Assembly: GCA_949751835.1 (NCBI GenBank)
Contig: CATKHK010000058.1
Location: forward strand, 244,842 to 308,841
DNA length: 64,000 bases
DNA from: Blepharisma japonicum
Taxonomy: Eukaryota; Ciliophora; Heterotrichea; Heterotrichida; Blepharismidae
Direction of reading: 5' to 3'
Below are positions 19,999 through 31,400 of this stretch, in pieces; the first letter of the stretch is position 1; each line of letters opens with the position of its first letter. Under the pieces are notes generated by a model. It ran no database searches, had not been told where the DNA came from, and worked only from the letters and a program-made list of their open reading frames with translations. The position numbers and the translations under genes are program-made.

Positions 19999-20304
19999 AT
20001 GGAAATCAAAGAAGAATTATCTATATGCTCAACAGAAAACTTAGATCTCCCTGAGATTGTAGGCTCTGAAAATAATATCTCTAAAGACTGAATGAAATGG
20101 GCGATCTTAGTCCAAAGTATCCTTATTCTGTTTGTATTATACCTTTTAGTTAGAATTGATTCAAAGCAAGCCCATGTCATTGAACTTTTAAAGCAGCAGC
20201 AAGAGCAACTATATAATTTCACAAGTGCTCCTGATGACTCACTTTTTGATACGGTTAACGATGGATTCTGGACTTTTACTTCTTTGCTGGCTCGATCAAT
20301 TTAA
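19999..20304 (+). CDS. small single-span membrane protein
   Basis: 101 residues from ATG 19999 (MEIKEELSICSTENLDLPEI). An in-frame TGA gives a KDW-MKW pair just before one transmembrane helix (WAILVQSILILFVLYLLV, about residues 34-52). The 50 residues after it carry a short amphipathic helix (QAHVIELLKQQQEQLYNF) and a Trp/Phe-rich end (NDGFWTFTSLLARSI). No signal peptide or known family. The size, single span and short helix resemble small accessory subunits of membrane complexes, but nothing in the sequence identifies one. Confidence 0.65.
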
Positions 20305-20608
20305 TGCTTAATTCTTATTTGGTAGATTAAAGCTTAATTTTAATAAATTAATGGGAATGATAAGTACTAATTATTTTATTAAGAGATTTTCTTGAATATA
20401 ATATTCAAAGTAGAGAAATAGCGGAAAAAGCCTTTTTAACTGCTTAAATCTATTTTAAGAGATATAATAGATTTCAAAGCCATATAAAATATTATATAAA
20501 GGTGCTTAATAAGCATAAAAATTCTTTTAATAAGGTTCTTAATATTAGCTTTAAACTGGGTTAAACAAGATTATAAAATTCCATTTAATAAGAAATAGAA
20601 ATATAAAA
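20305..20608. other. intergenic, no gene seen
   Basis: AT-rich leader between two plus-strand genes. No open frame of note. Confidence 0.55.
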
Positions 20609-21364
20609 ATGCAAGAATCTCAACAAGCTGCACAAGAATTAGAGTCAATCTCTGGAAGCGTTAAAGCCTATCATCCCAGCAATAAATTTAAAGCGATGAT
20701 TTATAATGTTGCCCCAAAATCAACATCTGTACAACAGCTGCAATCAAGCAGATACCAACCCAGAACAGATGTAAATGAATTTTATTATATCGATACAGCC
20801 TTAGCTGAAGATGCAATGATAAAAAACCCAGATCCAGATAAGCTATATCCTTGGCAAATAAACTCTTGTAAGCAGCTTGCTGATAGAGTTTCAGTTGATA
20901 ACGAAACTTCAAATTTGCTTAGCTATGGTCTTGATAATATGGACAGTCACCTGAAAACCATAGAAAATGAGCTAAATCTGAAGACCACAGATAGGATCAG
21001 ACAAATAAATGAAGGCCAAAGCAAACTTTCAGAAAGACTCTGCACTATTAGGTGGAAACTTGAACAATTTCTTGAATCCAGAAATTCAATCAAAAGGGAT
21101 TTGGGAGAGGAGCTGAAAATAAGGGCAAAGATCGATCATTTGAACAAAAAGATGGAAATGAAATCGAAACTTGAGAGAATTAATACACAAAATGTAAGTA
21201 TGATAGGCAAAGTGAACGTACCTCAAGAAGAAGTAGGCAGCATTCTGAATATTCTTAGAGAACAGCGAGAAAATGTGAATAATCTAAGGAAATTAGTTTC
21301 TGCGGATTCTAATTTGGCTTCAAGAATAGAAGAAGCAGTTCAAAGGTTTAGAAAAAATAATTAA
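20609..21364 (+). CDS. Nup54-like nucleoporin (alpha-helical C-terminal region)
   Basis: 251-residue protein resembling the helical part of Nup54/Nup57, a central-channel nucleoporin that pairs with Nup62 and Nup58. Family-like points are FKAMIYNVAPK near residue 30, then a TALAEDAMIKNPDPDKLYP stretch (compare the ENPDP motif of animal Nup54), a helix with QLADRV, and about 120 residues of coiled coil. The end is typical: EEVGSILNILREQRENVNNL and a final RIEEAVQRF. The FG-repeat N-terminus of animal Nup54 is absent, so either the FG part is on another protein or this is a shorter form. No intron and no TGA. The assignment rests on motif order and needs a profile search. Confidence 0.55.
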   Translation: MQESQQAAQELESISGSVKAYHPSNKFKAMIYNVAPKSTSVQQLQSSRYQPRTDVNEFYYIDTALAEDAMIKNPDPDKLYPWQINSCKQLADRVSVDNETSNLLSYGLDNMDSHLKTIENELNLKTTDRIRQINEGQSKLSERLCTIRWKLEQFLESRNSIKRDLGEELKIRAKIDHLNKKMEMKSKLERINTQNVSMIGKVNVPQEEVGSILNILREQRENVNNLRKLVSADSNLASRIEEAVQRFRKNN

Positions 21365-21650
21365 GAACTCTTAATGATTAAACTGTTTAAATATAAATTA
21401 TCTTATCTAAATAAATTCAGCTCGGCTATATATATACTAAGTATAGACATAAGTTTTTAGGATCAATGCAGGATCTTTTATAGTTTGACTTAAGATAAAC
21501 AAAGAAAAGTTTAAATTGATTGACATTAAATATTTACATTTATGCACCTAAAAGTTACAAAGGCAAGCAATAGAATTTAAAAATAATATATTGGCCAGTT
21601 AAATAAAAGAGCATGAATGACTCTTATGATATTAAATTTCTAGGCAAATA

Positions 21651-24600
21651 TTAATAGAATTCCTTTCCGAGTGAAAAGTCCTGATTAATTTCTTCCACAG
21701 ATGAACGGCGACTTGGAACAATTTTTGAAAGGGCAGCCTTGGAGTGCTTACCAAAAGCAAACGCGAACTTGAATAAATGAGTTGTATCCAAACCTTTTTT
21801 CCTATACAGAAGACTGGGATACTTTTTTCTTTGAACGTAAATTCCAACAAGCAAAATTATTATTCACCCTATACATACGATAGAAAAATAAATATATGCG
21901 TTTCCTTCAACATTTGATAAGACTGTCGAAAGTATAGAAAGCCAAAGCACGCCTATTAAGCCCAAAGCTTGCCATCAGCATAGTCTTGGATAATTATAGG
22001 GCTTATATCTAAAATTAAATCCAATGTAAGCGATCATTAAAAGTGCAAAAAGGGCTCCATGAACAGTGCTTTCAGCTCTTTTGATTGTTTTGTTCATGAC
22101 TATAAATATGACTTGAACAACAGTTTTTACCATTAAGAATGGAGGAGCTGTATGTATATGCACCATATGATGTAGTTCTTGTCACAAAGGCCTACACAGC
22201 ACAGCAAGTGGTTCGTAACATAAGAGTGCAATAAAAGAAAAAATTGCATATATTAGATGTTCATCTTTTCAGCAAAAGTAATAGCAATCTGCAGCAAGAA
22301 AACTGTCAGTAAAGTTGTCTCCAGTAGATTGATCACATATAAACACATTCAAACACATCGAAATAAAAGGTATAAAGCACAAGTTGCCTAAAATAGGCAT
22401 TAAATATTCTGCAAGTCAAGCTAAAAATCTAAACAATGTCACTCTAGGAAATTTTTCATCTAAACTGAGTAGAATAACTAAAGATAAAATTAACCATAAT
22501 AAAATAGCCCCATAGACTCCATCTATTATAATTCAAAATACCCCTTTTTCAAGTGCAAAAATACTGTCTAGGCTGAGAGAGAGTGAGCTGCTGATTTTTG
22601 CTAGGAAACCATTTATTGGGGTTATATCTGGTCCCATAGCTGCAAATTGGAAAAGTTCAATAGCAAGAGTTAATTCAACAATAATATCTTGCAATGACAT
22701 TTCTTGCCTTTCTTTAAGCTCTTCAATAGTTATATTTCATCAATTTTTTCATATATATACTGTAGCAACAAAAGACATTAAAGCAAACACAAAACAGATG
22801 GCAAAAACAATGATTCTTCCTTTAACAAATATTCTTACCAGCTTCTCAGAAAAAGGGCATTTATTATTTTGATTTCTCAGGTCATCTGGTTTTACAGTAC
22901 TCCCATCTCCATAAATAATAGGTGAATTAATAGCTAACAAAGTAGTGCTTAATGGGTGAAATTCTCCCATTTTGTATGAGATTACACTTCCAGAACTTGC
23001 ATCTATTTTGCTAATCATGACATCGAAAGCGTCCATAACTCTGTCGTTGCTATTTCTATCAATAGAAACTATTCCTGTGCATCCGGTGAATTTTTGTGCT
23101 CTGATTGCTAAATTTATTTGGTAAGGATCAGTATAATCGTTTCCTTGGTTTATTATGTAGTCTAATGCAATCCCAATTAAATATGCTGCATCATAACTAG
23201 AGCAAGCAGTAGGAATTGGCGCAAAATTATATCGAGACTCTATCTCTGAGTAAGCATTTTCCCCAACTTTACCGACTCAATATCGCCCACTAATAGCCAT
23301 CATTGGAACTCCAGTTTCTTTAAATTTATATTCATAGAGAAAATCATATTGTATCATTGTAAGTATTTCTTGGTTTGTAACAAAAATAAAAAGATCTCCT
23401 TTCCTTAGGCCCATATCATACAACTCTTCAATAATATAATATATTACAGGTGGCAAGAATAGTAAAACTAGAAGCCTTGCTTCTGTATCAATAATTGCTT
23501 GTAATGATTGAGAATTTTTTTTTATATTGGTTCTATTTAGATCTGCAGGCATCGCCCTTGAGTTTTCAGAATTCAGAATTTCTAAGTTATATTGTCTTAC
23601 GTTATTCATAATTGCTGAATATCCTGACCTTCCAGATATATCATCTGAATATAAAACACACATTTTCCTTCAGCCTAAAGCTCTAAATAAAGTTTACTAC
23701 CTTGAGCGAGAAATTTATTTTTATGTTTATAGAGGGGAAAGGAGTTACAGCCTTAAAAAAAAATTTGCATTAATTTTGTGATTAACGATGGATGGAATAA
23801 ATAAAAGTGAAGTCAGCGAATACAGGTATTGATTTGAAATAATTACTCTTGTAAACAGAGGATAAAGTGCTGTAGAATTCAACGAATAGTCGTCAGGCAA
23901 AAAACCAACAATTGGAATAGTTAAATTTAGGCTTTTAAAGAGATTGATTTCTGCAATAGTCATTACAGAGCTAGGTGCTGATATGTGTGCTAATCCAAAT
24001 TTTTCTTGGTCTTTGATAAAGCAAGCTGTTGCAAATTCTTTATCATAATTAAGCACACCGCAATCAAAAGTAAAGTGCTTAATTTGAAAATGTGTTAAAA
24101 TTCCAAGTTTGCCTTCATTAATTAAACTCCATGCTGTATAAGCACCGTGATATAGAAGAGGCACAACAGCTAGAGGAGGAGTACCTGGGTTGGTGGAGCC
24201 TCCAGAGGCTGTCATATGCAAAATCTTCTTGTCTAATATCGGGGTATTAATACTATTTCCAGGGTAAATCAAATTCTTCAAGATAGTTACTGTCCCAGCA
24301 TAAACTGACCCAACTATTTCTCTCTTATTGTGCTGAATATTTACTATAGAAAATTGATTTTTTTTGTTATATATCTTCATAAAAAGCTTAATATCTTCTG
24401 CTGTTTCTACCGCGTGATTCAATAAATATTGTATCAAATTTTCAAAAGAACTAATTAAAAAATTTTCTTGGGAACTCGCATATTCTTGTCCTATAACAGT
24501 AACAATGATTGCTCCATCAATTCTGCATTCATAGCCACTGTTTTGGCTTAACAATATTCCATCTCCATTTGATAGGAGTTTTTTGGATTTCAAGGCCTCC

Positions 24601-25235
24601 TGAATTTTTGACGATAGAACAGAATTTGCAAAAATGTAATATAGTGTAGCACCTAAAGGCTTGATAATTCGGTTTACTAGCCTTTCAAGATTTGCGGACT
24701 CTTCTATAGTTATATAATCAAAAGTATCTGAATAATCTAGAAATTTCGACTTAATGCCTGCATTATCTTCATCAGTGATAACAAGTCCATGAGTTCAATT
24801 AAAATAAGCTAAAGTTGCAAAATATGCATTGATTTGGGCTAAGTTTGATGGGACGATTTCATATGTTCATTCATCATAATAAGGAAATTCGCACTTTTTC
24901 TGAGGAACTAAATGGATTTTCTTATTTTCTTTGCATAGTTGGGAAATACTCAGTTGTGCTTCGAAATTTTCTAATAAATCAAGAACGATTAAAGCATTTG
25001 GATGTATGCCAATGCACTCTGAAATTAGTGAAGAGTTGCAATGGTGCCATTCGATAACTGACTCAAATTGTGTTTTTGTTTCCTCGATTCAAACTTGACT
25101 AAGCTTATTTCTATTATTTTGAATAATAATAATTTCAAATGAAGAACACAAATTCAGCATTGCTAAAATAGAGCACATCTTCATAAATCCAATGCTATAA
25201 AAGTCCCGCATCGATATTTTAGATTTTTTGTTCAT
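21651..25235 (-). CDS. receptor: periplasmic-binding-protein-type ligand domain plus 7-8 membrane helices
   Basis: Reading TGA as Trp, one long frame runs from ATG 25235 to TAA 21651, broken only by a 99-base TA-bounded insert (23684-23782) full of stops. Removing it keeps frame and gives about 1161 residues. A signal peptide lies near the N-terminus (MKMCSILAMLNLCSS). Two lobes of a type-I periplasmic-binding (ANF-receptor) fold follow. The boundary region reads VIISNQYLYSLTSLLFI, then, after excision, ALGWRKMCVLYSDD, then GLRKGDLFIFVT and SYDAAYLIGIALDYI. From about residue 720 there are 7-8 hydrophobic helices. The layout recalls class C receptors, but I do not see their heptahelical motifs. 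It is either a working gene needing excision or a young pseudogene. Confidence 0.65.
23684..23782. other. TA-bounded 99-bp insertion in receptor gene (IES-like)
   Basis: Plus-strand boundaries are ...AAGCTC-TA and TA-ACGATGG. Deleting one TA plus the intervening DNA fuses IPSIV to RALGWRKM, a normal transition in this fold. The insert has several in-frame TAA/TAG and is AT-rich. GT-AG splicing at the same place does not restore frame. It resembles a ciliate internal eliminated sequence retained in this copy. Confidence 0.55.
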
Positions 25236-25499
25236 TTTTTTAAAACATATTTTCCTTATTAAAAAATTGAAATTTTGATTTATGTCAAATAGTTTATGAG
25301 ATAGAAAGCATAACTACCTAAAATCGTTTTTATAGCCAATGATCACACAAAGTTTTAATAGCATCCGAATTAAAACCGATAATGCTATCCAAAACATATG
25401 TAAAAATAATTTATTATAAAAATTTAAAGATTGAATTTAGTTAAGGTAGTTATGGGTCACTTCCTATGATTTGAATTCATGATAGACTGAAAGGCATTT

Positions 25500-25870
25500 T
25501 TACTTAATTTCTGATTGGACTCCACAGACTTCGCATGTAGAGCCTGATCAAAAATACGCCAACGCATAATAAAAGAGGTCCCAAAAAAAAGTTAACGGAA
25601 AATTTTTATCATCTGCAATATGATTTATAAAAGTTGGTGAATGATCCACCTTATTAAGTTCCTCTAAAGAATTGAGAATCTTAAAGAAGGAGTGGGGCAT
25701 ATATGTGTCTGGCTAAGTTTTAGTGAGGCAGATATAGTGACGATGCTCATTTGATAGGCCAAAGTTCTATCCTGAGGTCGTAGGAAATAGGACACGAAGT
25801 TGGAAGAGATTCAATAGATTACCAGAATATTCGAAATTTTAATTTTCAATTGAAATAGCCCTGACTACAC
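25500..25870 (-). pseudogene. decayed coding remnant, membrane-protein-like
   Basis: Minus strand. A 66-residue frame from ATG 25700 to TAA 25500 (MPHSFFKILNSLEELNK, then DLFYYALAYFWSGSTC with Trp as TGA) is preceded, in another frame, by further protein-like sequence (SNFVSYFLRPQDRTLAYQMS) up to about 25870. This suggests a frameshifted old gene. I could not link it to the receptor or any other family. Confidence 0.35.
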
Positions 25871-26460
25871 ACGGAATGGTGATTCAAACCTCTCAATGCC
25901 CATTAGCGAGGCTCTCATCCGGAATTTCAGTGTGCGTACTAGCGAGCAAGCTGTGATAATTAGGAAAAATAATAAAGTCTAAAAAGGCACCTAACAGTGA
26001 GTTTTTCTACAAGTCTAAACAATCATAATCGTTTATTCTATATCAGATGCACCAATAAATCTATTGAAATCATTTTCAAACAGCAATTTACGTATAATTC
26101 GCAATATCTATATTCAAAGAGAGATAGAATTATAATTTATTTAGATTTTTTAATTGGCCATTCCTCTTAAAGAGAGGGTAATTTTCATAAATAGGGTCTT
26201 TCTGATCAAATTAATAATTGAAATTAATAAAATTTTTTGATTTTTTGAGTTCATAAATTTATTAAGGCTTTTTAGCATACTCAAATCTGATTTTTCATAG
26301 AGTGTTTTTGGCCAGCGTCACTGTCTCTGGTAGCTCGCACAAGCCCTTGTCCTAGAGGAGAAATACAGTGAGAGACTGATCTCAGACTGGTAAGCAAATG
26401 GTGGAGTTTAGTGGCCTGCTATCATGCTAAGAATTTCTTTATAAGTAATTAAGCAACTTG
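25871..26460. other. non-coding, unassigned
   Basis: No convincing gene. Two patches (about 25861-25960 and 26300-26430) have richer GC and more mixed composition than the surrounding AT-rich DNA. They could be old coding or repeat remnants. No tRNA fold was found by eye. Confidence 0.4.
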
Positions 26461-26858
26461 AGCTAAGTCTGATGGAATGATTTCATAAGTTCATTCATCA
26501 TAATAAGAAAATCCGCACTTTTTCTGAGGAACTAAATGGATTTTATTATTTTCTTTGCATAGTTGAGAAAGCCTCAACCGTCCTTCGAAATTTTCTAATA
26601 AATCAAGAACGATTAAAGCATTTGGATGTATGCCAATGCACTCTGAAATTAGTAAAGAGTTGCAATGGTGCCATTCGATAACTGACTCAAATTGTGTTTT
26701 TGTTTCCTCGATTCAAACTTGGCTAAGTTTATTTCTATTATTTTGAGCAATAATAATTTCAAATGAAGAACATAAATTTAGCATCACTAAATAGAGTATA
26801 TCTTTATAAATCCAATGCTATAAAAGTCCAGCTTCGATATTTTAGATTTTTTGCTCAT
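26461..26858 (-). pseudogene. receptor pseudogene fragment, N-terminal part
   Basis: Strongly similar to 24838-25235 of the intact receptor: the start (MSKKSKISK), the NAL-IVLDLLENF region and EWTYEIIPSDLA. A one-base deletion near 26780 (ACTAAATAGAG against GCTAAAATAGAG) breaks the frame. The homology ends abruptly at 26461, where the rest of the receptor is missing. Confidence 0.8.
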
Positions 26859-26989
26859 ATTTTTTTAATCCAAAAATTGAAATTCTAATTTATGCTAAAT
26901 ATTTTAATCTTGTTTTCAATATAATTTTTTATTAAAAGTTTAAATTCCTTTTAAGACTAAGCAATATTTTACTTAAAGGGAGTCAATTA

Positions 26990-27780
26990 TTAACAGACTT
27001 CGTTTGCAACGGAAAAGTCCTTTATCATTTCTTCCACAGATGAACGACGACTTGGAACAATTTTTGAAAGGGCAGCCTTGGAGTGCTTACCAAAAGCAAA
27101 TGCGAACTTGAATAAATGAGTTGTATCCAAACCTTTTTTCCTATACAGAAGACTAGGATACTTTTTTCTTTGTACGTAAATTCCAACAAGCAAAATTATT
27201 ATTCATCCTATACATACTATTGAAAAATAAATATATGTGTTTCCTTCAACATATGACGAGACTGTCGAAAGTATAGAAAGCCAAAGCACACCAATCAAGC
27301 TCAAAGCTTGCCATCAGCAAAGTCTTGGATAATTATAGGGCTTATATCTAAATATAAATCCAATGTAAGCGACCATTAAAACTGCAAAAAGGGTTCCATG
27401 AACAGTGCTTTCAGCTCTTTTGATTGTTTTGTTCATGACTATAAATATGACTTGAACCACAGTTTTACCATTAAGAATGGAGGAGCTGTATGTATATGCA
27501 CCATTTGATGCAATTCTTGTCACAAAGGCCTACATAGCACGGCAAGTGGTTCATAGCATAAGAGGGCAATAAAAGAAAAAATCGCATACATTAGATGCTC
27601 ATCTTTTCAGCAAAAATAATAGCAATCTGCAGCAAGAAAACTGTCAGTAAAGTTGTCTCCAGTAGATTGATCACATAAAAAGACATTCAAACACATCGAA
27701 ATAAAAGGAATAAAGCACAAGTCGCCTAAAATAGGCATTAAATATTCTGCAAGCCAAGATAAAAATCTAAAAAATGACCC
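26990..27780 (-). pseudogene. receptor pseudogene fragment, C-terminal membrane part
   Basis: Close copy of 21651-22440 of the intact receptor (helices 3 to 8 and the basic tail GLDTTHLFKFAFAFGKHSK). A single T is missing around 27463 (CAGTTTTACC against CAGTTTTTACC), shifting the frame inside the TVVQVIFIVMNKTIK helix. The fragment ends at about 27780. It lies upstream, in gene orientation, of the N-terminal fragment, so the two cannot be one gene: they are leftovers of two tandem copies or of a rearranged copy. Confidence 0.8.
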
Positions 27781-27782
27781 TA

Positions 27783-27920
27783 GAGGCCTGGATAAGAGAT
27801 GGAGATGCATTAAGGTGTCTGAGACTGCCATCGGGAGATGCAATCGTAACATTCGCAGATGATAATGCTTGAAATGACTTTAGAAAAAGAGGAAAAATAG
27901 TAGTGCCACATGAACATTAA
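27783..27920 (+). pseudogene. orphan C-terminal coding fragment
   Basis: An open frame of 45 codons starts exactly where receptor similarity ends and closes with TAA at 27918-27920: EAWIRDGDALRCLRLPSGDA, then IVTFADDNAWNDFRKRGKIV. It has strong protein character, richer codon use than its surroundings and one TGA-Trp. It has no start of its own. It looks like the 3' end of an unrelated gene joined to the receptor fragment by a rearrangement. No family recognised. Confidence 0.45.
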
Positions 27921-28280
27921 AAAACTAATGATTCCCTCAGGCCCTGTCTTTGAAGCAGAATAGTCAATTTCCTCCAGTAACTTGTTTTAAAAATTATATT
28001 GCATTGATCTATTTTGATCGAGCTGAAATAAATAAATTTCCATCTTGACAATTCACTGAAATTTTTAAAATTTTAAGAAAAATTTGAGATTTATAACTTA
28101 AAAAAAAACCTTAACAATTAATTTTGGCAAAAAAGTAGGTTTTTTTAAAATTTTGGTAGCTTAATCTATTAAGAATACCAAATACTTTACTAAAAAAATA
28201 AAATCCTTTGAAAAAGGATGAAATGTTAAAAATTAGCATCTATAAGCTATCTCATAACAAAAAAACTTTATGATTATAAT
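27921..28280. other. intergenic, AT-rich
   Basis: No gene seen. Poly-A/T tracts only. Confidence 0.5.
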
Positions 28281-28364
28281 ATGGCTAAAAAAGAGAGAGA
28301 AGAACTTTTTTATTTAATTATAATTATAATTGCTCTTATAGCAGCATTAAAGTTCAATTTGTAA
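28281..28364 (+). CDS. possible 27-residue membrane microprotein
   Basis: ATG 28281 to TAA 28362-28364 encodes MAKKEREELFYLIIIIIALI followed by AALKFNL. A charged N-terminus, one perfect hydrophobic helix and a basic end are the layout of single-span microproteins. There is no homology evidence, and in AT-rich DNA such ORFs arise by chance, because Ile/Leu codons are AT-rich. It lies 89 bases upstream of the first TmcB-like gene and could also act as an upstream ORF. Confidence 0.3.
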   Translation: MAKKEREELFYLIIIIIALIAALKFNL

Positions 28365-28452
28365 ATTTCTAATAAATTTGTAAAATTATAAATATAGTCT
28401 TCCATGATCTCTGGGATTAATTAAGTTATTAATTATTTTTGTTATTAATAGC

Positions 28453-31400
28453 ATGCCAAACACTTTAAGATCAATCGAGAATGAAGTCAAGGATCTTCAC
28501 AGCTTTCTTTCACAGTCACTTTTTTCAAGCAAATTTAAGAACTACTTTTATGGCTTTTTCTGTCACCTTTTCAAAGTAAAGTACAACAGAAAAACAAAAC
28601 CAAATATACAGCTCAGCTACGAAATATTAACAAACACCGTTTTCATGCTACAGGTAATATCACTAGCTTGATATCCGAACATGAAGGTGAATGATTGGAG
28701 CTCATACTTAATAATATGACAACTGCTTGGATGAGCAAGTTATGATAGCGTTTGTGCAAATTTAGGGGTTATGAATCTTTGCTTTTACGCGACAGTTTCT
28801 CTTCTAGGTATGTGCTTATTATCATTTACAATTTTTGGATTTTTTATATACATTAAAAAAGATCCACCAATTTATATATCAATTTGGCCACGCAAAATTG
28901 CTACTCTACTCACAACAGTGTGCTTGATTCCCACCACAATGATTTTATTAATGATAACAAAATACTCAATAATCAGCACCCAAGTAATAGGAGAATATGA
29001 TGGATTGTCTTCCTCTATCCTTGATTTCGGCATTCAGGGAGTTTTTTTGTCTGCTATTGGGCTCGCGATTTTGATATCAATTAATTTATATTGTGAATAT
29101 TTTTCTTGTGATATTCAACATTCCCACCCAGAAAAAAATTTAAAATCAAGATCATGTTCTCTTTTAGACATGCAAAAAAGACTTTTTTACATCGTCGCTT
29201 GCATTTCATTTGTAACTTTTGTGGACGGTAAAGCAATTATTCATCAATCCGTCTTATTTTCTTTTTCACTGTTTTTGAGTTATAAATCGATAACAATTTT
29301 ACAATATTTCAATGCACTTGAAAATATAATTGAAGCTTGTAAACTCAGCCTAATTTCTACTACATTGCTATTTTTTATTTTTGGAGAGCTCTTAAACAGC
29401 GCTTCAATTATAATTGTCTTTACAATTTTTCTACAGCCAATAATTTTTCTTCTGGTAACTAGGCTGGTTAGACGAAATTATGCAAAGCTAAAAGATAGCA
29501 AAGATTGCCCGAAAGACCAGTTTGAGTTCGAAAGAAAATTCAGATATTTATTAATAGATAAAGATTATGAAGATAAATTTTGGATATTAGATTTATTCAA
29601 GACTTTTTGAAAAGCGAATAAATTTCAAAAAGACAAGCTTTTCGTTATATGGGAATTTAATTATTGCCTTTCAATAGTTAAGGATGAAAGATTAGCAAGG
29701 GTAAAATTGTCGAAAATTGGAAATGCAAAATCTTCGTTTGAAGGAGAAATCCAAGAGTGAAGGCTTTTTACATGACTTGTTAAGAGGAAATGCAAATCTT
29801 TTCCTGAAACAAGTTATTTAGAATTTTTAAAAGAATTCAGTAGAATTAGAGCTCAAGATGAGGAACTTTGCTATGTGCTGATAGAACTTCAAGCTGAGGT
29901 TTCTCTAAAAGCTCCAAGAATTGATAAAATTATGAACTTGTCACAAAAAACAACGAATTATTTAATAAGCCTTTCCGACGATTTTAAAAATCTGTGTGAC
30001 AAATATAAGAATGTTGAAGCTTATGAATTAAATGCGAGTTTTTTAGAAAATATATCAAACAAGCATGAAGAAGCAGAAAAAATGAGCAGAAAAAAAAACG
30101 GACTTGATTATTTTCATCAGCAAAATAATATCAAAAAATTAGAAAGCTATGGAAAAGATGTGCCGATTTTATTGGTTTCTTGCACTGATAATAATATTGT
30201 GTACCTCAACGAAAAAGCTTCAAGGTTGTTTAAAACTTCAATAGGAAATATAATTGGCACTTCACTTTTGAATTTTATTCCTCAGCCTTTTGACGTTTGC
30301 CACATTACAAACATTAAAGATTATGTGTTAGAGAGCAGCGAAATTGAGCTTCCATCACACAAGCATTTATTTTTTCAAAATACCCAAGGAGACTTATTTG
30401 AATGCAATTTTTTAATTAAATTGACAGCATTTCATAACTGCGCATATTTTTTGATTTCATTTAAGCAAAGGAAAGCAAAGCGTGACATTGCAATAATTTC
30501 AGATGATGGGTTTATTATGGGACATTCAGAGTTATTCCCCTTTTATATAGGTTCTGAATCGAGAATCCTTAAAGGCCAAAAATTATCATCAATTGTTCCT
30601 ATTTTAGAAATAAATAAAATGAGAGAATATGAGCCGTGACTAATGCCATTTAATGGTGGCGAAATTGCTTTTATTAAAACAAAAAAACAAATAAAGTCAA
30701 CCGTGATTCGTGAATTTATAATTCTTCATGACGACGATGAAATAAAAAACTGAAAAGAAGGGATTGGCCTAGACCAATTAAATTATTTCGCAGACCAAGA
30801 TATGACTTTTGACTTTGACAAATCTCAAATAGAAGAAGAAGAAGAAGGTAGAAAAAACATCCAGGTTCAATTTCTCTCAGTTAGTAATATTTCGCTTTTG
30901 CCAAAGCCTTCATTCGAAACAGAAGTGTATACTAATGAAGAATTTCACGTTAACGAAATAAGTTCTCGGAGAATGGAAGACCCTTTTCCAAAAAATGAAG
31001 ATAAAAAATCAGGTACTGAAGATTATTCAAAATCCTCAGTTGGATCAAAATTTTCAAAACAAGCTCAAAATCTCCTTTCAGAATCAAAAAGAAAAATCAG
31101 AATCCTTCAAGTTATGCTATTTGTAGTGGTAAGAATAAATTAGATGTCTTCAGTTATAGTAGTAGTTAGTGCCATTATGGGGTATATGATCACTGATGTG
31201 TCATATACAACTTCTCTAAGCTCTTTCAAAAATTTAGGACAGCTTTTATATGATTTTGGGCTATCTGCAGATGCCGTAAGAGTTGTTGATAATTTAAAGT
31301 TGGTCAATGCAACTGATGAGCAAATAAATGATGCAATTATAGATTTACAAAATTTAATATCAGACTTAGAATCTGTCCAAGGAACAATTTTTAAAGATTT

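What the first reader, a model, noticed from the sequence alone, without database searches (positions are those of the whole stretch)
23684..23782. TA-bounded 99-bp insertion in the receptor gene resembles an internal eliminated sequence
The insert splits a conserved turn of the ligand-binding domain. Precise deletion between two TA dinucleotides restores SIV-RALGWRKM in frame. No GT-AG pair works. The insert carries several stops and is AT-rich. Germline IESs of ciliates including Blepharisma are TA-bounded and cut out by domesticated transposases, so this may be an IES retained in somatic DNA, or a sign that this contig or allele includes germline sequence.
Basis: partly seen in the sequence, partly recalled or inferred. 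Interest (0 to 1): 0.7.

Follow-up and report, generated by a model that had tools for sequence, protein, structure and literature searches.

The report
Short IES-like insertion in ciliate receptor gene
A 114-base piece of DNA interrupts an otherwise intact receptor gene in a ciliate of the Blepharisma type and has the ends and size of the DNA segments these cells normally cut out when building their working genome, so it is probably such a segment left in place, but only sequencing reads can show whether the cell ever removes it.

Summary
The insertion is real, but its boundaries differ from those given. Compared with 88 fetched paralogs of the same genome, the minus-strand receptor gene carries 114 extra bases (23684-23797), not 99: 0 of 88 have the five residues that a 99-bp excision would leave. 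The 114 bp is flanked by an exact 8-bp direct repeat, TAAATAAA, single at the empty site of the closest paralog; chance about 0.0004. Without it the gene is open for 1,182 codons and colinear with its closest paralogs, with branch dN/dS 0.24 against 0.21. UGA=Trp, 15-nt introns, CCCTAACA telomeres and PiggyBac homologs point to a Blepharisma-type macronuclear assembly. Published Blepharisma IESs are mostly TA-bound and intragenic, a quarter short; the insert fits, except that it has no inverted repeat and is not on a named length peak. Best reading: an IES, or former IES, left in the somatic assembly. Main rival: an ordinary insertion with an 8-bp target duplication in a family where broken copies are common. 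Germline contamination is not supported. No reads or RNA were available, so excision is not shown.

The parts
21651..25313 (-). Receptor-like gene (ANF_receptor ligand-binding region; C-terminal part looks hydrophobic by eye, no membrane prediction run; UGA=Trp): two in-phase open stretches 25313-23748 and 23693-21654, stop at 21653-21651; the extent is stop to stop and the start codon is not determined
   Evidence: the closest paralog L002 matches residues 25-1182 in one alignment at 80% identity
23684..23797 (.). 114-bp insertion relative to the gene family (position floats over the 8-bp repeat)
   Evidence: 0 of 88 paralog loci carry it; in C97 the two flanks meet with an 8-base overlap
23684..23691 (.). 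Terminal direct repeat copy 1, TAAATAAA (inside the insert in this register)
23798..23805 (.). Terminal direct repeat copy 2, TAAATAAA (the single copy at the empty site of the closest paralogs, read TTTATTTA on the minus strand)
23783..23785 (.).
23683..23697 (-). 15-nt GT...AG stretch GTAAACTTTATTTAG across the insert's end, resembling 15-nt introns of neighbouring genes; its removal alone leaves stops upstream of it in the insert
26458..26906 (-). Truncated 5' piece of a second copy of the same gene (89% identical)
26981..27776 (-). Truncated 3' piece of a further copy (93% identical)

Best explanation
The 114 bp is an internal eliminated sequence, or a recently former one, that stayed in the somatic (macronuclear) consensus of a Blepharisma-type ciliate. 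In the working model, an element inserted into the germline copy of this receptor gene and left the direct repeat TAAATAAA. During macronuclear development the excision machinery (in Blepharisma the domesticated PiggyBac 'PiggyMac' is the published candidate, PMC9942806) would cut at the TA-containing repeats and rejoin them, leaving one TAAATAAA and the coding sequence SLLF-RALGWRK. At this locus excision failed in most of the copies that entered the assembly. Shown here: the 114-bp boundaries, the repeat, the empty site in paralogs, the otherwise open gene, its constraint over the branch, no second copy of the insert found in the assembly, and PiggyBac-domain genes in this genome. Inferred: that the sequence is ever excised, and by what.
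For: Boundaries: 88 of 88 fetched paralog loci span the junction without it. In C97 the window flanks match 131606-131997 and 131990-132383, so the 8-bp repeat is single there, and the sequence across the empty site equals the joined window flanks. Repeat of 8 bp containing TA: chance about 0.0004. Without the insert: 1,182 open codons. Branch dN/dS 0.236 against 0.207 for the rest of a five-sequence tree; omega = 1 rejected, 2 x delta lnL = 47. One match only, itself, for the 99-bp core in the genome. Organism type: UGA=Trp, 15-nt GT-AG introns joining neighbouring frames, CCCTAACA arrays at contig ends, PF13843 with three full-length open matches, 0 of 14 control genomes. Published B. stoltei IESs: three quarters bounded by a direct repeat containing TA, about a quarter in the 65-115 bp range and largely nonrepetitive, about 70% intragenic (PMC9942856; repeat definition, passage).
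Against: No reads, transcript or germline sequence were seen. No terminal inverted repeat (best 6 of 14; shuffles reach this in 91%), though published IESs share no single motif. 114 bp is in the published range but 4 bp off the named 110-bp peak. If only a TA were duplicated, an 8-bp repeat would be unlikely (0.0045), which favours an 8-bp target duplication of another kind. Residual IES retention in B. stoltei macronuclear DNA is given as 0.02 or less (passage), so a consensus-level retained IES would be unusual. At least 6 of the 88 paralog loci carry a stop, frame change or large deletion, so broken genes are common in this family. The assembly's one copy of the gene holds the insert; no empty allele was found.
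Confidence: 0.58

Rival explanations
1. Ordinary insertion with an 8-bp target-site duplication (a decayed small transposon or similar) that sits in germline and soma alike, is never excised, and has made this family member a recent pseudogene.
For: Exact 8-bp direct repeat, longer than TA alone would predict. Lesions are common in the family: stops, frame changes or large deletions in at least 6 of 88 loci. Truncated copies lie next to the gene. Since the split from those fragments the window copy has 13 synonymous and 15 replacement changes, the fragments 11 and 21, with 34 unresolved, which is not a clear difference.
Against: No inverted repeats, no other copy found in the assembly, no second stop or frame change in 1,182 codons, branch dN/dS like the intact paralogs. 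A very recent insertion would explain the last two.
Confidence: 0.28
2. The contig, or this stretch of it, comes from germline (micronuclear) DNA.
For: It would explain an unexcised IES directly; PiggyBac-like matches with internal stops are present elsewhere in the assembly; the contig end in this window bears no telomere repeat.
Against: The end motif of the abundant B. stoltei germline MITE is found only 8 times in 45 Mb, each with 2 mismatches (control 0); within the fetched flanks (up to 1.5 kb) of those hits there is no inverted partner at the published MITE length, only weak partners about 20 bases away in L042 and L043/L044. Other contigs end in telomere repeats. An open frame elsewhere in the window runs for 1,154 codons. 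Within the alignments of 88 paralog loci (60 of them fetched only as about 1.3-3.5 kb pieces) no other insertion of 8 or more residues has a direct repeat of its own length.
Confidence: 0.06
3. The insert, or part of it, is removed from the RNA as an intron.
For: Several GT-AG or GC-AG choices, a 66-nt GT-AG one among them, would open the frame, and GTAAACTTTATTTAG at the insert's end looks like the 15-nt introns of neighbouring genes.
Against: None of the 14 single or 107 double GT/GC-AG choices that leave the stretch open restores SLLFRALGW or removes 114 nt. The 66-nt version leaves 16 extra residues where none of 88 paralogs has an insertion of that kind. Introns found here are 15 nt and B. 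stoltei introns are predominantly 15 and 16. An intron does not predict the direct repeat.
Confidence: 0.03
4. Assembly artefact (a chimeric or minor-variant path chosen by the assembler).
For: The assembly is unnamed and its reads are not held; assemblers are said to treat partly retained IESs unevenly (PMC9942856, passage).
Against: The insert's 99-bp core matches nothing else in the genome, the repeat is clean, and the next best DNA match to the flanks is 87% identical.
Confidence: 0.05

Closest known systems
Short TA-bound IESs of Blepharisma stoltei (Seah et al. 2023, PMC9942856)
   Same: Direct repeat containing TA at the ends, length inside 65-115 bp, AT-rich, no second copy found, intragenic, exact removal restores the frame
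   Different: Seen here in a somatic-type assembly rather than germline reads; excision not shown; repeat is 8 bp; no inverted repeat; length not at a named peak (72, 110)
Paramecium IESs cut by PiggyMac (recalled, and as described in the two Blepharisma papers)
   Same: TA at both ends, mostly intragenic, precise excision needed for the frame
   Different: Paramecium IESs have a TAYNR end motif and a first length peak at 28 bp; the TAYNR motif was not tested here
Small transposon relics with 8-bp target-site duplications (hAT or Merlin type, recalled)
   Same: 8-bp direct repeat around a short AT-rich insert
   Different: No terminal inverted repeats and no second copy found in the assembly

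Membership tests
Blepharisma-type TA-bound IES | Terminal direct repeat containing TA, one copy in the insert and one in the flank | tested here: met
   TAAATAAA, 8 bp; definition in a passage
Blepharisma-type TA-bound IES | Exact removal restores the coding sequence of the somatic gene | tested here: met
   empty site as in L002, 1,182 open codons
Blepharisma-type TA-bound IES | Length in the short range (about 65-115 bp) | tested here: met
   114 bp; range
Blepharisma-type TA-bound IES | Length on one of the periodic peaks | tested here: inconclusive
   114 is 4 bp off the named 110-bp peak; peak widths are in a supplement not held. Most published IESs are off-peak
Blepharisma-type TA-bound IES | Terminal inverted repeats (common, not universal) | tested here: not met
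   best 6 of 14 in any register, shuffles at least as good in 91%; no single motif is shared by all published IESs, so it is not a defining feature
Blepharisma-type TA-bound IES | Absent from macronuclear DNA, present in micronuclear DNA | not testable with these tools
   no reads held; the one assembly held contains it
Blepharisma-type TA-bound IES | Host has the IES machinery (domesticated PiggyBac) | tested here: met
   PF13843: 12 matches, three of them full-length with open frames; catalytic triads not checked
Spliceosomal intron of the host type | GT-AG, 15-16 nt, removal restores the family sequence | tested here: not met
   host-type introns
MITE / small DNA transposon | Terminal inverted repeats and several copies | tested here: not met
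   copies limited to the germline would not be visible here
MITE / small DNA transposon | Target-site duplication | tested here: met
   8-bp repeat

The most novel reading that the evidence does not exclude
Excision of this IES is variable or regulated between macronuclei, so that it works as a developmental on/off switch for one member of a receptor family with more than 100 matching places in the genome, comparable to the IES-type control of mating type in Paramecium (recalled). The open, constrained frame on both sides is what such a switch would predict.
Probability: 0.05. Interest if true: 0.7.

Novelty: new member of a known kind. Interest (0 to 1): 0.35.

Why it matters
If it is a retained IES, it is a precise natural case of the imperfect boundary between germline and soma in a ciliate that branches early. 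The empty site, insert and paralogs are all known, so it can be tested with reads. It also shows that IES boundaries read from frame restoration alone can be wrong: paralogs moved this one by 15 bp.

Tried and rejected
99-bp boundaries: rejected, because 0 of 88 paralog loci carry the residues it would leave and its repeat is only TAA. Frame restoration as evidence by itself: weak, since 10 TA-TA pairs do it, and a window-wide scan for frames of 100 or more codons joinable by a TA-containing repeat of 7 or more gave 10 pairs of frames on the plus strand and 11 on the minus strand, the receptor among the latter; none of the others was tested for homology. Of 9 frame pairs (the receptor among them) tried with one 15-17-nt GT-AG intron, 5 are joined by exactly one such intron, each of 15 nt, four of them alike (GTA...TTAG); the receptor is not. 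Copy of other DNA: no second match for the 99-bp core in the genome, and only chance-level matches for the 114 bp in the part of the window list that was printed. Rfam: no match in 20000-30000. Retrotransposed RNA: the A-run lies inside the insert, not at its end (by eye). Other insertions of 8 or more residues in the family alignments (103 alignments): one of 27 residues (L022) and two of 10 (L069, L095); none has a direct repeat of its own length, though L022 has a 6-bp one at 76 bp. Solved structures: only weak matches of L002, to Glutamate receptor 3.4 and a taste receptor (E 0.005 and 0.008). The first pattern search used a made-up pattern and found nothing; it carries no information. An SSU rRNA search to name the organism did not complete, so the organism is inferred, not named.

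Full report
What is there. The window lies in a 45.2-Mb, 224-contig assembly. On the minus strand two in-phase open stretches, 25313-23748 and 23693-21654, carry parts of the Pfam ANF_receptor region: the downstream part above Pfam's cut-off (E 2.4e-12), the upstream part below it (E 0.00018). The closest paralog, L002, matches most of the model (E 2.5e-27, best stretch 74-347 of 353). Between the two stretches lies a stop-rich, AT-rich segment.

Its true extent. A protein search of the same genome gave 110 matches, a lower bound by the tool's own note; two of them are the two halves of this gene. The other 108 lie in 106 places by my count, two places being matched in two pieces. All 88 span the junction. 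None has the five residues IPSIV that a 99-bp excision would leave; 77 align with no gap from 11 residues before to 14 after the junction, and the other 11 have gaps of one to four residues. The family sequence is of the kind SLLF-RALGWRK, so the insertion is 114 bp, 23684-23797. The DNA says the same: the window flanks match C97:131606-131997 and C97:131990-132383, which overlap by the 8 bases that the window holds twice, TAAATAAA, and L002 reads CACTTTTATTTAGAGCTTTAGGCTGAAGGAAA across the empty site, as the window does when its flanks are joined. No copy of the gene without the insert was found in the assembly; the next best DNA match is 87%.

Chance. With the breakpoints fixed by homology, random inserts give a direct repeat of 8 or more in 0.0004-0.0005 of trials. 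If only TA is assumed duplicated, the repeat reaches 8 in 0.0045.

State of the gene. Without the 114 bp the frame is open for 1,182 codons and colinear with the closest paralogs L002-L004, each in one alignment. Pairwise dN/dS to them is 0.24-0.25, against 0.22-0.26 among them. In a five-sequence codon model the window branch has 0.236 against 0.207; a common ratio is not rejected (2 x delta lnL about 0.6), while a ratio of 1 on this branch is (2 x delta lnL about 47). This averages over the whole branch and cannot exclude a very recent loss. Against the truncated tandem copies at 26458-26906 and 26981-27776, polarised changes are 13 synonymous to 15 replacement in the window copy and 11 to 21 in the fragments, with 34 unresolved; this separates nothing, and part of the 5' stretch may be untranslated. 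Results against the IES reading: other family members are damaged too, at least 6 of 88 (L005, L052 a stop; L048 a frame change; L049 several stops; L051 a frame change with loss; L050 an in-frame deletion), and L009 and L015 change frame in the longer comparison, of which 14 loci were looked at. So a pseudogene is not surprising here.

What organism and which nucleus. UGA is read as Trp in long frames. Of 9 frame pairs tried, 5 join by one 15-nt GT-AG intron, such as GTAAGAATTATTTAG. CCCTAACA arrays occur at contig ends, though not at the contig end in this window. PiggyBac-type transposase domains occur in three full-length open copies plus interrupted ones. These match the published description of Blepharisma stoltei (41 Mb, UGA=Trp, predominantly 15-16 nt introns, CCCTAACA telomeres; PMC9942806: abstract, one Results section and passages seen). 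Germline contamination: the published end motif of the abundant germline MITE occurs 8 times, each with 2 mismatches (control 0); inside the fetched flanks (up to 1.5 kb) the only inverted partners are weak ones about 20 bases away in L042 and L043/L044. A B. stoltei-like germline would hold thousands of copies (8,000 in the abstract). The assembly therefore looks somatic, with the caveat that another species may lack this element.

Comparison with IESs. In the B. stoltei germline paper PMC9942856 (abstract, first part of the Results, one Discussion section, one Methods section and passages seen) about 40,000 IESs are described: three quarters bounded by direct repeats containing TA, of any length; about 10,800 of 65-115 bp with length peaks (72 and 110 most abundant); short ones largely nonrepetitive; about 70% intragenic; residual retention in macronuclear DNA 0.02 or less. 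The insert meets the repeat, length-range, copy-number, intragenic and frame criteria. It has no inverted repeat, and its length is 4 bp off the 110-bp peak. It is therefore IES-like by sequence, and membership stays open because the defining fact, absence from macronuclear DNA, could not be tested.

Splicing. Of single GT/GC-AG choices, 14 leave the stretch open (8 in the family frame); of two-intron choices, 107 (26 in the family frame). None removes 114 nt in all or restores SLLFRALGW. The 66-nt GT-AG one leaves 16 extra residues, and the 15-nt intron-like stretch at the insert's edge does not remove the stops upstream of it. An RNA-level explanation is unlikely.

Verdict. A 114-bp, TA-bound insertion, most likely an IES or former IES retained in the somatic assembly (0.58), with an ordinary insertion that broke one of many paralogs as main rival (0.28). 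It is a new member of a known kind; interest is modest unless reads show variable excision. Paper searches were read as listings, and the two Blepharisma papers only in the parts named; I saw nothing on this locus, which does not show that it is unpublished: it may be in a supplementary IES table.

Noticed in passing
L050 about 1484 (G000:C34 about 5483): A paralog lacks about 303 coding bases in frame, with the shared bases ATAT at the junction. This looks like a TA-bound excision of coding DNA, a mirror image of the window's insert and like the 'cryptic IES' excisions mentioned for B. stoltei.
   Followed up: partly
G000; window 21651-25313: Receptor family with ANF_receptor ligand-binding regions in more than 100 matching places, many in tandem arrays (C19, C112, C30, C73), with at least 6 of 88 fetched members damaged.
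   Followed up: partly
window 26458-27776: Two truncated copies of the receptor gene (a 5' piece, and the 3' piece of another copy) lie tandem to it, 89-93% identical, as expected from unequal exchange.
   Followed up: partly
L040-L047: Eight near matches (2 mismatches each) to the Bogo germline transposon end, control 0. In L042 and L043/L044 a match faces a weaker inverted match about 20 bases away; the L043/L044 place lies within 600 bases of the telomeric end of C38. They may be relics of that element in somatic DNA.
   Followed up: partly
window 23697-23683 (minus strand): GTAAACTTTATTTAG spans the insert's end and the flanking G and resembles the 15-nt introns found in neighbouring genes; possibly coincidence.
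   Followed up: partly
L049 (end of C145) and L010 (start of C123): The end of C145 and the start of C123 share 115 identical bases in inverted orientation, a shared terminal repeat or an assembly branch. The C145-end paralog also has roughly 100 bp of poorly alignable sequence that ends near the codon where the window's insert sits.
   Followed up: no
G000:C214, C5, C9, C112: PiggyBac transposase-domain matches, most with internal TAA or TAG stops, beside three full-length open ones; pseudogenes, intron-bearing genes or germline relics.
   Followed up: no
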